From contig JAEYVD010000105.1 of the NCBI GenBank assembly GCA_023432075.1, forward strand, positions 1 through 16,482: 16,482 nt of DNA. The letters run 5' to 3'. Positions within the stretch are counted from its first letter, which is position 1. Each line of letters begins with the position of its first letter. Below the pieces are notes generated by a model, which saw nothing but the letters and a program-made list of their open reading frames with translations, was not told the DNA's origin and did no database searches. The stretch comes from Pseudomonadota bacterium. Lineage in GTDB: Bacteria; Pseudomonadota; Gammaproteobacteria; Burkholderiales; Burkholderiaceae_B. The translations under genes were made by a program, and so were the position numbers. Positions 1,464 through 11,336 of the stretch are shown here, piece after piece.

Positions 1464-1472
1464 TTATCCACA
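1464..1472 (+). promoter_or_regulatory. Perfect DnaA box abutting the amidohydrolase start
   Basis: The sequence is TTATCCACA, an exact match to the DnaA box consensus TTATNCACA. It ends three bases before the ATG at 1476 and occupies the place where a ribosome binding site would be expected. No purine-rich Shine-Dalgarno sequence is visible there. It could be a genuine DnaA-binding site that affects expression of the amidohydrolase or titrates DnaA. Binding is inferred from sequence only. Confidence 0.6.
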
Positions 1473-1475
1473 GCC

Positions 1476-2675
1476 ATGAAAACCATTGCCGAAATCGAAC
1501 GCGTACACGGGGACCTGACTGCGCTGCGGCGCGATATCCATGCCCATCCCGAACTGGCGTTTCAGGAAACGCGCACTTCCAACCTGGTGGCCGAGCGTCT
1601 GCGCGGCTGGGGACTGGAAGTCCACACCGGGCTGGGGAAAACCGGGGTGGTGGGCATTCTGCGTGCGGGCAGCGGCGGCAAGACCATTGGCCTGCGCGCC
1701 GACATGGATGCGCTGCCGATGCCCGAGCACAACCGTTTTGCCCACAAGTCCACGATCAGCGGGCGCATGCATGGCTGCGGCCACGATGGGCACACGACGA
1801 TGCTGCTGGGCGCCGCGCAGTATCTGTCGACGCATCGCAATTTTGATGGCACGGTGGTGTTCATCTTCCAGCCGGCCGAGGAAGGCGGCAACGCCGGCGC
1901 GCGCGCCATGATGCAGGACGGGCTGTTCGACAAGTTTCCCTGCGATGCCGTGTTCGGCATCCACAACATGCCCGGCATGCCGGTGAACCAGTTCGGGTTC
2001 CGGTCCGGTCCCACGATGGCGTCCAGCAACCGCTGGGACATCGTCATCAAGGGGGTCGGCGGCCACGCCGCGCAGCCGCATTCGTCGGTCGACCCCATCA
2101 TCGTCGCCGCCGACATGGTGCATGCGCTGCAGACGGTCATTTCGCGCAGCAAGAATCCGCTGGAACAGGCCGTGCTGTCGATCACGCAGATTCACGCAGG
2201 CGATGCATACAACGTGATTCCTGGCGAAGCCGTGCTGCGCGGCACCGTGCGCACGTATTCGGTGGACACGCTGGACAAGATCGAAGCCGACATGCGGCGC
2301 ATCGCGACTACCTTGCCGCAGGTGTATGGCGGCACGGGCGAGCTGGATTTCGTGCGCGCATATCCGCCGCTGGTGAACTGGGAGAACGAAACCGCCTTCG
2401 CGGCGAAGGTCGCCGAAGACGCCTTTGGCGCGGAGAACGTGCTGCGCGACATGCCGCCGTTCATGGGGGCGGAAGACTTTTCGTTCTTCCTGGAATCCGT
2501 GCCGGGCTCGTACCTGTTCCTGGGCAATGGCGACGGCGACCACCGCATGGAAACCTATCACGGCATGGGTCCGTGCCAGCTGCACAATCCCAATTACGAC
2601 TTCAACGACGCGTTGCTGCCGGTCGGCGCGACGTACTGGGTGAAGCTGGTCGAAGCATTCTTGCCGGTCCGGTAA
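1476..2675 (+). CDS. M20D family amidohydrolase (hippurate hydrolase / N-acyl-amino-acid amidohydrolase type)
   Basis: A 399-residue metal-dependent amidohydrolase of the M20D (HipO/IAA-amino acid hydrolase) family. It is predicted to be cytoplasmic, since no signal peptide is seen. The N-terminal RRDIHAHPELAF (18-29) and LRADMDALPM (73-82) blocks are diagnostic. Expected di-metal ligands are Cys101 and His103 in MHGCGHDGH (98-106), Glu135/Glu136 in QPAEEGG, His163 in GIHNMPG and His370 in LHNPNYDFND. The middle section (about 185-295), with GVGGHAAQPHSSVDP, is the lid/dimerisation domain. Family members hydrolyse N-acyl amino acids such as hippurate or acetyl amino acids; the exact substrate is not readable. 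The gene follows the ABC ATPases by 111 bp on the same strand, suggesting that an imported acylated amino acid or peptide is its substrate (inference). The start at 1476 matches the usual family N-terminus, but a perfect DnaA box takes the ribosome-site position. Confidence 0.92.
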   Translation: MKTIAEIERVHGDLTALRRDIHAHPELAFQETRTSNLVAERLRGWGLEVHTGLGKTGVVGILRAGSGGKTIGLRADMDALPMPEHNRFAHKSTISGRMHGCGHDGHTTMLLGAAQYLSTHRNFDGTVVFIFQPAEEGGNAGARAMMQDGLFDKFPCDAVFGIHNMPGMPVNQFGFRSGPTMASSNRWDIVIKGVGGHAAQPHSSVDPIIVAADMVHALQTVISRSKNPLEQAVLSITQIHAGDAYNVIPGEAVLRGTVRTYSVDTLDKIEADMRRIATTLPQVYGGTGELDFVRAYPPLVNWENETAFAAKVAEDAFGAENVLRDMPPFMGAEDFSFFLESVPGSYLFLGNGDGDHRMETYHGMGPCQLHNPNYDFNDALLPVGATYWVKLVEAFLPVR

Positions 2676-2716
2676 CGACCGATCCGCTATTTGTTTATAT
2701 GCGGTTGGTCATGAAG

Positions 2717-2741
2717 CCGCGGGTCGCCCCCGCGGTTTTTT
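2717..2741 (+). terminator. Intrinsic terminator after the amidohydrolase gene
   Basis: A GC stem CCGCGGG (2717-2723) pairs with CCCGCGG (2729-2735) around a 5-nt loop and is followed by six T residues (2736-2741). It lies 41 bp past the amidohydrolase stop and separates the peptide-type ABC operon from the dioxygenase operon. Confidence 0.9.
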
Positions 2742-2763
2742 GCTATATGACGTAAAGCTTTGA

Positions 2764-2787
2764 TCAAACGCCGATAACTTCGTTTGA
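2764..2787. promoter_or_regulatory. Dyad operator candidate upstream of the dioxygenase operon
   Basis: A perfect inverted repeat, TCAAACG (2764-2770) and CGTTTGA (2781-2787), is separated by 10 bp and runs into the predicted -35 hexamer. Its left arm also belongs to a 10-bp palindrome TTTGATCAAA (2759-2768). A further perfect 8-bp inverted repeat (AAACGCCG at 2766-2773, CGGCGTTT at 2797-2804) spans the same promoter up to the -10 box. The position suggests repressor binding. No regulator gene lies in the window, so the protein is unknown. Confidence 0.45.
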
Positions 2788-2811
2788 GATGGATGGCGGC
2801 GTTTTCATAAT
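2784..2811 (+). promoter_or_regulatory. Sigma70-like promoter of the dioxygenase/ABC operon
   Basis: TTGAGA (2784-2789, five of six to TTGACA) and CATAAT (2806-2811, five of six to TATAAT) are separated by 16 bp. They lie just after the upstream terminator and about 40 bp before the dioxygenase start, so the leader would be short. The -35 overlaps the right arm of the dyad at 2764-2787. This is a sequence match only. Confidence 0.5.
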
Positions 2812-2853
2812 CGGTCGTTCCTGCCATGCCGATAAGGCGAACCGGAGCGACCG

Positions 2854-10833: not shown

Positions 10834-10849
10834 CCGGAAAACCGGAAAA
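10834..10849. repeat. Tandem 8-mer between rpmH and rnpA
   Basis: Two head-to-tail copies of CCGGAAAA lie at 10834-10841 and 10842-10849, starting just after the rpmH stop on the transcribed minus strand. In RNA this gives a CCGG-UUUU-CCGG mini-hairpin. It may help set unequal expression of L34 and RnpA or may be incidental. Confidence 0.5.
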
Positions 10850-10855
10850 CTGGAC

Positions 10856-10990
10856 TTAGACGGCCAGACGCTTGCGGCCCTTGGCGCGACGGGCGCTCAG
10901 GATCGCGCGGCCAGCGCGGGTTTTCATGCGCACGCGAAAGCCATGGGTGCGCTTGCGGCGGGTAACGGAAGGTTGGTAGGTGCGTTTCAT
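10856..10990 (-). CDS. rpmH: 50S ribosomal protein L34
   Basis: A 44-residue, very basic protein, MKRTYQPSVTRRKRTHGF to KGRKRLAV, with the near-universal L34 sequence including GFRVRMKTRAGRAILSARRAKGR. It is a structural protein of the large ribosomal subunit. It is the first gene of the rpmH-rnpA-yidD-yidC cluster, transcribed divergently from dnaA. The upstream sequence has no strong Shine-Dalgarno element; the leader just before the ATG is T-rich. Confidence 0.97.
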   Translation of the reverse strand: MKRTYQPSVTRRKRTHGFRVRMKTRAGRAILSARRAKGRKRLAV

Positions 10991-11133
10991 GGACGATCCA
11001 CAAAAAGAACAAAGTCAGAAGGGACCTGCCCGGAGGGTTCCACGTCGCGCTAAGCAGAAGCGGGTATCTAGGAGCATTTTTGCAACGGGTTTCGCAACCG
11101 GTGCGAAAAACGACTCTAAGACGGGGCTCTGTA

Positions 11134-11151
11134 CCGAGAATTTCATCTCGG
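11134..11151. repeat. Inverted repeat in the rpmH leader region
   Basis: CCGAGA (11134-11139) and TCTCGG (11146-11151) flank a 6-nt centre, a perfect 6-bp dyad. It has no T-run, so it is not a terminator. It may be a protein site or an RNA hairpin in the rpmH leader. Confidence 0.5.
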
Positions 11152-11176
11152 GCGACCTATTCAGCAAAGCTAAAAA

Positions 11177-11209
11177 CCGGACAAATTGCTCTTGTAGGAG
11201 CGTGTCCGG
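11177..11209. repeat. Nested inverted repeat between rpmH and dnaA
   Basis: The outer arms CCGGACA (11177-11183) and TGTCCGG (11203-11209) enclose inner arms GCTC (11188-11191) and GAGC (11198-11201), giving a cruciform-capable or RNA stem of 7 plus 4 bp. It lies in the A/T-richer part of the intergenic region. Its function is unknown. Confidence 0.55.
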
Positions 11210-11327
11210 CCAGCTTTCTGCGAAACCTTCTGACAGACAGAATTCGGAAAAGCCCACCATTTCAGCAAGTTTTCCCTGTCTTGTCAAACAGTTAAGGGGG
11301 CGCCATGTAGACGCTTATGGCCCTCCC

Positions 11328-11336
11328 TGTGGATAA
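11328..11336 (-). promoter_or_regulatory. Perfect DnaA box at the dnaA promoter
   Basis: TGTGGATAA (TTATCCACA on the minus strand) lies 44 bp before the dnaA ATG and overlaps the expected -35 zone of the -10 candidate at 11354-11359. DnaA autorepression through a promoter-proximal box is established in E. coli, and this placement suggests the same here. Confidence 0.75.

What the first reader, a model, noticed from the sequence alone, without database searches (positions are those of the whole stretch)
1464..11336. Scattered constellation of perfect DnaA boxes far from dnaA
Reading both strands I find seven exact TTATCCACA sites (1464+, 3599+, 3788+, 4874-, 4910-, 7661-, 11328-) and one TTATACACA (6449+). 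An exact 9-mer on both strands of 16.5 kb is expected about 0.13 times with equal base frequencies, and less in GC-rich DNA. Only the site at 11328 lies next to dnaA; the rest sit 3.7-9.9 kb to the left, in metabolic genes that would not be expected to carry them. This resembles a DnaA-titration locus (like E. coli datA), a DnaA-reactivating region, or a diffuse origin. That DnaA binds this 9-mer is established; the role here is inference.
Basis: partly seen in the sequence, partly recalled or inferred. Interest (0 to 1): 0.85.

Follow-up and report, generated by a model that had tools for sequence, protein, structure and literature searches.

The report
Scattered DnaA-binding sites flanking replication origin
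Achromobacter bacteria carry about fifteen scattered copies of the binding site for the replication-starting protein DnaA within a few tens of kilobases of their replication origin, far more than chance gives, probably as a sponge that soaks up DnaA just after replication has started.

Summary
In detail: seven exact TTATCCACA sites in 16.5 kb (shuffle mean 0.01). The window is Achromobacter DNA and lies beside the origin: in the nearest held genome, G001, oriC (an E. coli-like facing pair of boxes 181 bp apart beside an AT-rich stretch) is about 15 kb left of the window's start. The seven boxes belong to an array from about -20 to +60 kb of oriC. All 13 Achromobacter genomes read have it: 11-19 exact boxes outside the oriC core. 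In five complete chromosomes the +-60 kb around oriC is 56-76 times richer than the rest, and 50-59% of exact boxes lie in 1.7-1.9% of the chromosome. Composition and codon usage do not explain it. Boxes are kept more than neighbouring 9-mers, yet 41 of 66 orthologous groups occur in one genome only: selection for number near oriC rather than for single sites. Best explanation: a dispersed, origin-proximal DnaA titration array, in genomes without a SeqA match. The kind is known from E. coli; the sharpness and gene-embedded form are new to me. DnaA binding and function are untested.

The parts
1464..1472 (+). exact DnaA box, just upstream of the ATG (1476) of the M20 peptidase gene
   Evidence: kept in 8 of 10 aligned Achromobacter genomes
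3599..3607 (+). exact DnaA box inside the TauD-family dioxygenase gene
   Evidence: kept in 1 of 11 aligned genomes, G001 only
3788..3796 (+). exact DnaA box at the start of the NMT1-like binding-protein gene (in the leader if the start is the ATG at 3806)
   Evidence: kept in 12 of 13
4874..4882 (-). exact DnaA box inside the ABC ATPase gene, first of a pair 36 bp apart
   Evidence: kept in 9 of 9 aligned genomes, region not aligned in 4
4910..4918 (-). exact DnaA box inside the ABC ATPase gene, second of the pair
   Evidence: kept in 9 of 9 aligned genomes, region not aligned in 4
6449..6457 (+). near-consensus DnaA box TTATACACA inside the ABC permease gene
   Evidence: kept in 7 of 9 aligned
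7661..7669 (-). exact DnaA box inside the catalase gene
   Evidence: kept in 3 of 12 aligned, most others TCATCCACA
11328..11336 (-). exact DnaA box just upstream of dnaA, probably its autoregulatory site
   Evidence: kept in 13 of 13; a minus-strand box within 700 bp upstream of dnaA in 78 of 80 loci, the other two starting at or near a contig end
549..557 (-). near-consensus box TTTTCCACA
   Evidence: kept in 8 of 13
845..853 (+). near-consensus box TTATCCCCA
   Evidence: kept in 5 of 13
4018..4026 (-). near-consensus box ATATCCACA
   Evidence: kept in 7 of 9 aligned
4090..4098 (-). near-consensus box ATATCCACA
   Evidence: kept in 6 of 9 aligned
5291..5299 (+). near-consensus box TTATCCCCA
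   Evidence: kept in 1 of 9 aligned
6505..6513 (-). near-consensus box TTTTCCACA
   Evidence: kept in 7 of 9 aligned
14319..14327 (+). near-consensus box ATATCCACA inside gyrB
   Evidence: kept in 6 of 13
11366..12841 (+). dnaA, the gene of the initiator protein presumed to bind the boxes
   Evidence: dnaA relatives found with it

Best explanation
The seven boxes are part of the right-hand arm of a dispersed, origin-proximal array of DnaA boxes that titrates DnaA. Shown here: the array in 13 Achromobacter genomes, its place around the likely oriC, its excess over composition and codon controls, its largely DnaA-like sequence tolerance, and its conservation with turnover. Inferred: DnaA binds these boxes in the cell; since about half of the chromosome's exact boxes lie within 60 kb of oriC, they are doubled very soon after initiation, which lowers free DnaA and hinders immediate re-initiation; Hda-dependent inactivation of DnaA acts beside it.
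For: Density 56-76 times that of the far chromosome in 5 complete chromosomes; rank 1 of 1680 same-letter 9-mers, 197 near against 8 far; 104 boxes in called genes against 3.7 in codon-preserving shuffles, maximum 10 of 200; variants usually accepted by DnaA co-enriched, position-2 changes not; boxes kept 70% against 24% in genes and 92% against 37% between genes; 41 of 66 orthologous groups in one genome only while the number per genome stays at 11-19; no SeqA match in 13 of 13 and Hda above cut-off in 13 of 13. Models: only near-origin sites let titration alone prevent re-initiation at fast growth (PMC9640692, passages); E. coli boxes accumulate near oriC and DnaA is titrated (PMC12371093).
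Against: No binding or phenotype data. Some 15 exact boxes could be too few if DnaA is abundant. The array is not needed by all relatives: 16 of 20 genomes outside the genus whose oriC I placed have 0-5 such boxes, G026 has 1. One genome (G004) shows no better keeping of boxes in genes (0.21 against 0.26). The group-wise test is weak (P 0.048 in genes, 0.22 between genes). TTATACACA is not enriched when counted by group (1 near, 2 far), and TTGTCCACA, not counted among my accepted variants, is (21 near, 3 far).
Confidence: 0.6

Rival explanations
1. The boxes organise the origin region physically: DnaA bound to scattered boxes, perhaps with ParA/ParB at the neighbouring parS array, bridges and compacts or places the origin domain; effects on free DnaA are secondary.
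For: The array surrounds parAB, an 8-copy parS array (G001) and oriC; it has a sharp left edge at about -20 kb.
Against: No known regular spacing; single boxes turn over freely; no domain data.
Confidence: 0.17
2. The boxes are regulatory sites: DnaA controls transcription of the genes next to or around them.
For: 11328 lies before dnaA and 1464 and 3788 lie at gene starts; boxes are denser between genes (93 of 197 outside called genes, which make up 86% of the DNA).
Against: 104 of 197 boxes are inside called genes, the genes are unrelated in function, and most positions are not shared between species.
Confidence: 0.13
3. Another protein with the same target, for instance an origin-domain nucleoid protein, reads the motif.
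Against: The likely oriC uses the same 9-mer and the tolerated variants are largely those of DnaA.
Confidence: 0.05
4. The excess is chance, base composition or coding constraint.
For: None found.
Against: Dinucleotide shuffles, same-letter 9-mers, far-chromosome rates and codon-preserving shuffles all fall short by more than tenfold.
Confidence: 0.01

Closest known systems
Origin-biased DnaA-box density and DnaA titration in Escherichia coli (Olivi et al. 2025, PMC12371093)
   Same: DnaA boxes accumulate towards oriC beyond permuted motifs; lagging-strand preference reported there, and seen weakly here (41 of 64 groups, P 0.03)
   Different: There a broad rise on the scale of 2-10 centisomes with a relaxed motif and some 900 boxes; here an exact 9-mer, 56-76-fold, within 60 kb. 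E. coli MG1655 has only 2 exact boxes outside the core in about +-60 kb.
oriC-proximal DnaA-box clusters of Bacillus subtilis (Okumura et al. 2012, known to me only through PMC5295017, passages)
   Same: Box groups outside the origin whose joint deletion gives early initiation
   Different: Six compact clusters there; mostly single scattered boxes here. [quoted passage not shown] subtilis.
datA and DARS of E. coli
   Same: DnaA boxes outside oriC that affect DnaA activity
   Different: Compact elements that work on the nucleotide state of DnaA with IHF; here no compact element in the window. The stretch at -8.4 to -9.8 kb (outside the window) is the nearest thing to one.
Near-origin titration model (Berger and ten Wolde 2022, PMC9640692)
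   Same: Titration sites placed near the origin
   Different: A model case, set aside there for E. coli as not consistent with experiments

Membership tests
Origin-proximal DnaA titration array | Excess of DnaA boxes near oriC beyond composition | tested here: met
Origin-proximal DnaA titration array | Boxes maintained by selection | tested here: met
   weaker group-wise; not seen with G004 as anchor in genes
Origin-proximal DnaA titration array | DnaA bound at the boxes in the cell | not testable with these tools
   needs ChIP-seq
Origin-proximal DnaA titration array | Loss of boxes advances initiation or causes re-initiation | not testable with these tools
   needs recoded strains
datA/DARS element | Compact group of boxes in fixed spacing | tested here: not met
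   exact boxes in the window spread over 9.9 kb, one pair 36 bp apart
datA/DARS element | IHF or Fis site and effect on the nucleotide state of DnaA | not tested
   no search made
Chromosomal oriC within the window | Facing box pair with AT-rich unwinding element at the GC-skew minimum | tested here: not met
   this element lies about 15 kb to the left in G001
dnaA autoregulation (site 11328 only) | Conserved box just upstream of dnaA | tested here: met
   13 of 13 Achromobacter, 78 of 80 loci of the order

The most novel reading that the evidence does not exclude
Achromobacter is a natural case of replication control dominated by titration: without SeqA, it keeps a self-renewing array of exact DnaA boxes packed around oriC, arising by point changes inside unrelated genes, so that initiation itself removes free DnaA within about the first 1-2% of replication. 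Selection acts on the number of boxes near oriC, not on any one box.
Probability: 0.35. Interest if true: 0.82.

Novelty: new variant of a known kind. Interest (0 to 1): 0.64.

Why it matters
Whether DnaA titration alone can time replication is an old question; in E. coli the sites are diffuse and several other controls overlap. A model says that titration works alone at fast growth only with sites near the origin (PMC9640692). Achromobacter shows just that layout, strongly, without a SeqA match, and several related genera with the same oriC pair have few such boxes. That gives natural comparisons and a small, recodable set of sites for a direct test.

Tried and rejected
Rejected: chance and composition; coding constraint; mere shared ancestry; a diffuse origin in the window; an Rfam RNA at the 181-bp pair (no match up to E 1). 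The regional bins (permutation ranks and variants) were wrong through an indexing slip for contigs that begin near oriC; one search replaces them; the complete-chromosome figures do not depend on it. The group-wise conservation test gave P 0.048 in genes (20 groups) and 0.22 between genes (7 groups), since one-genome groups score zero by construction; one search counts all site-genome pairs, which are not independent of each other. Gene calls are an open-frame heuristic. A plasmid search found no record covering 80% of the window; the 20 best rows cover 6-13% of it. No match to a dif pattern recalled from memory lies within 5 kb of the far inverted box pair in G003 and G008. Papers: searches, open-licence library only, listings read; no listed title or abstract start reports such an array in Achromobacter or Bordetella. 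Passages of PMC4948915 describe dispersed DnaA boxes in the Burkholderia cenocepacia origin region; passages of PMC10977104 assume evenly spread sites.

Rows left out of the count: of 21 genomes outside the genus whose box lists I read, one search counted 18. Not counted there: G029 (Herbaspirillum; its facing pairs are 158 bp apart), with 11 boxes within 60 kb besides the first pair, nearly all within 9 kb, which goes against restriction to Achromobacter; G026 (Pigmentiphaga kullae), with 1; G023 (Bordetella petrii), whose oriC I did not place. Counts near contig ends are lower bounds. The eight genomes of other families gave totals only.

Full report
Observation. From left to right the window carries an oligopeptide ABC ATPase, an M20 peptidase, a TauD-family dioxygenase, an NMT1-like binding protein with an ABC ATPase and permease, catalase and yidC (Pfam), then yidD, rnpA, dnaA, dnaN and gyrB (recognised by eye; dnaA also by its relatives). 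The best matches by dnaA are Achromobacter species. The window's own assembly is not held; G001, sharing 45% of sampled 31-letter words, is the nearest.

Genome-wide density. G001 has 30 exact boxes in 5.9 Mb, of which 18 lie on contig C8 between 108.1 and 165.2 kb. The window aligns to C8:143037-149639 and 151482-161371 at 96% and 98% identity. Position lists of 12 more genomes of the genus each show one such peak; a fourteenth, G032, has 14 boxes within 42 kb of its facing pair besides the pair but enters no other count.

Where oriC is. In 13 of 13 genomes two boxes face each other 181 bp apart (and the lists). In E. coli MG1655 the two boxes of oriC lie 180 bp apart in the same orientation. 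An AT-rich stretch precedes the left box in G001 and in all 13. Within the 100 kb read on either side, the cumulative GC skew summed over the genomes has its minimum there. A facing pair with a gap of 165-180 bp is found in 47 of 81 genomes of the family. dnaA lies 16-58 kb to the right. In G001 the window's seven boxes are at +16.7 to +28.4 kb. Where oriC lies in the window's own genome is inferred from this.

Excess. In five complete chromosomes 18, 11, 16, 17 and 18 boxes lie within 60 kb of oriC, the core pair left out, against 0.20-0.28 expected from the rest. With the core, 50-59% of the exact boxes lie in 1.7-1.9% of the chromosome. Over the 13 genomes, -25 to +60 kb holds 197 boxes in 1.06 Mb and the far stretches 8 in 1.13 Mb; the box ranks first of 1680 9-mers of the same letters, the next having 45. 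By genome there are 11-19 (the reads of G004 and G012 do not cover the whole stretch). The left edge is sharp at about -20 kb; to the right the density falls gradually. Synonymous-codon shuffles give 3.7 boxes inside genes against 104 seen, highest shuffle 10 of 200.

What reads it. Several variants are also concentrated near oriC (near/far sites: TTTTCCACA 68/7, ATATCCACA 60/3, TTATCCCCA 43/3, CTATCCACA 18/0, TTATCAACA 17/2, TTATGCACA 14/1, TTATTCACA 11/0), whereas changes at position 2 are not (TGATCCACA 5/10, TCATCCACA 9/11, TAATCCACA 2/6). Counted by orthologous group the pattern holds for most; exceptions are TTATACACA (1/2 groups) and TTGTCCACA, which rises to 21/3 groups. That DnaA accepts most of these variants and needs T at position 2 is recalled knowledge.

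Conservation and turnover. 223 boxes between -25 and +62 kb fall into 66 orthologous groups; 9 groups occur in 10 or more genomes and 41 in one only. Some single ones reflect DNA that does not align. In aligned pairs a box in a gene is kept in 70% of 980 cases, phase-matched neighbours in 24%; between genes 92% of 581 against 37%. With G004 as anchor, boxes in genes are not kept better (0.21 against 0.26). The stretch at -8.4 to -9.8 kb, beside mnmG, aligns between few genomes, yet each of the 13 has 2-4 exact boxes there, and the 2-kb bin holds on average 5.6 near-consensus ones. So boxes come and go while the number near oriC stays similar.

Range. Among 18 genomes outside the genus counted, 16 have 0-5 boxes within 60 kb of the core, an Alcaligenes has 7 and G038 has 14 within 31 kb. 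Herbaspirillum (G029), not in that count, has 11, nearly all within 9 kb. So rich origin surroundings occur elsewhere; what sets Achromobacter apart in my sample is their spread over some 80 kb. E. coli MG1655 has 2 in about +-60 kb. In +-10 kb around dnaA, five named Achromobacter loci hold 5, 6, 2, 7 and 7 boxes (the locus with 2, A. ruhlandii, is cut on its right side only), and 51 of the 75 other loci hold one.

Mechanism. A SeqA match is absent in 13 of 13 genomes and an Hda match above the cut-off present in 13 of 13. In the titration model, sites near the origin double soon after initiation and pull free DnaA below threshold; Berger and ten Wolde write that only such placement would prevent premature re-initiation by titration alone at fast growth (PMC9640692, passages). 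Olivi and colleagues report box accumulation near oriC and titration of DnaA in E. coli (PMC12371093: abstract, one results section, first part of the discussion). In B. subtilis, deletion of six box clusters causes early initiation (as told in PMC5295017, passages). By analogy I read the Achromobacter array as a titration device. On the right arm 27 of 37 box groups, overall 41 of 64, lie on the lagging strand (P 0.008 and 0.03, one member taken per group, no correction), as reported for E. coli. Everything from DnaA binding onwards is inference.

Verdict. A real and strong feature of a known kind, in a sharper and differently built form, well suited to test a long-standing model.

Noticed in passing
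L036 16478-17703 (G001 C8:116478-117703): Eight parS-like sites (TGTTNCACGTGNAACA) in 1.2 kb between mnmG and the DnaA-box-rich stretch at -8.4 to -9.8 kb from oriC.
   Followed up: partly
L006 1500-1522 (G001 C5:227798-227820): Two exact boxes in inverted order, 5 bases apart, inside a strong hairpin. Such a pair is in 12 of 13 Achromobacter genomes (not G004), at 0.46-0.49 of the chromosome from oriC in five complete ones, i.e. near the terminus; in G003 and G008 the flanks differ but still pair. Terminator or DnaA site is open.
   Followed up: partly
G001 C8:127956-141938: No exact box in this 14 kb, which includes a VgrG-like gene at 135169-137289 (by eye); it may be a recent insertion that has not yet gained boxes.
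   Followed up: no
G029 C1 around 5683389-5685639 and 1-1545: Herbaspirillum has two facing box pairs 158 bp apart within 1.1 kb and a dense compact group of boxes; G038 also has two facing pairs 1.1 kb apart.
   Followed up: partly
window 6596-6603: Here G001 carries about 1.8 kb that the window lacks, with a LysR-like and a GST-like gene (by eye).
   Followed up: no
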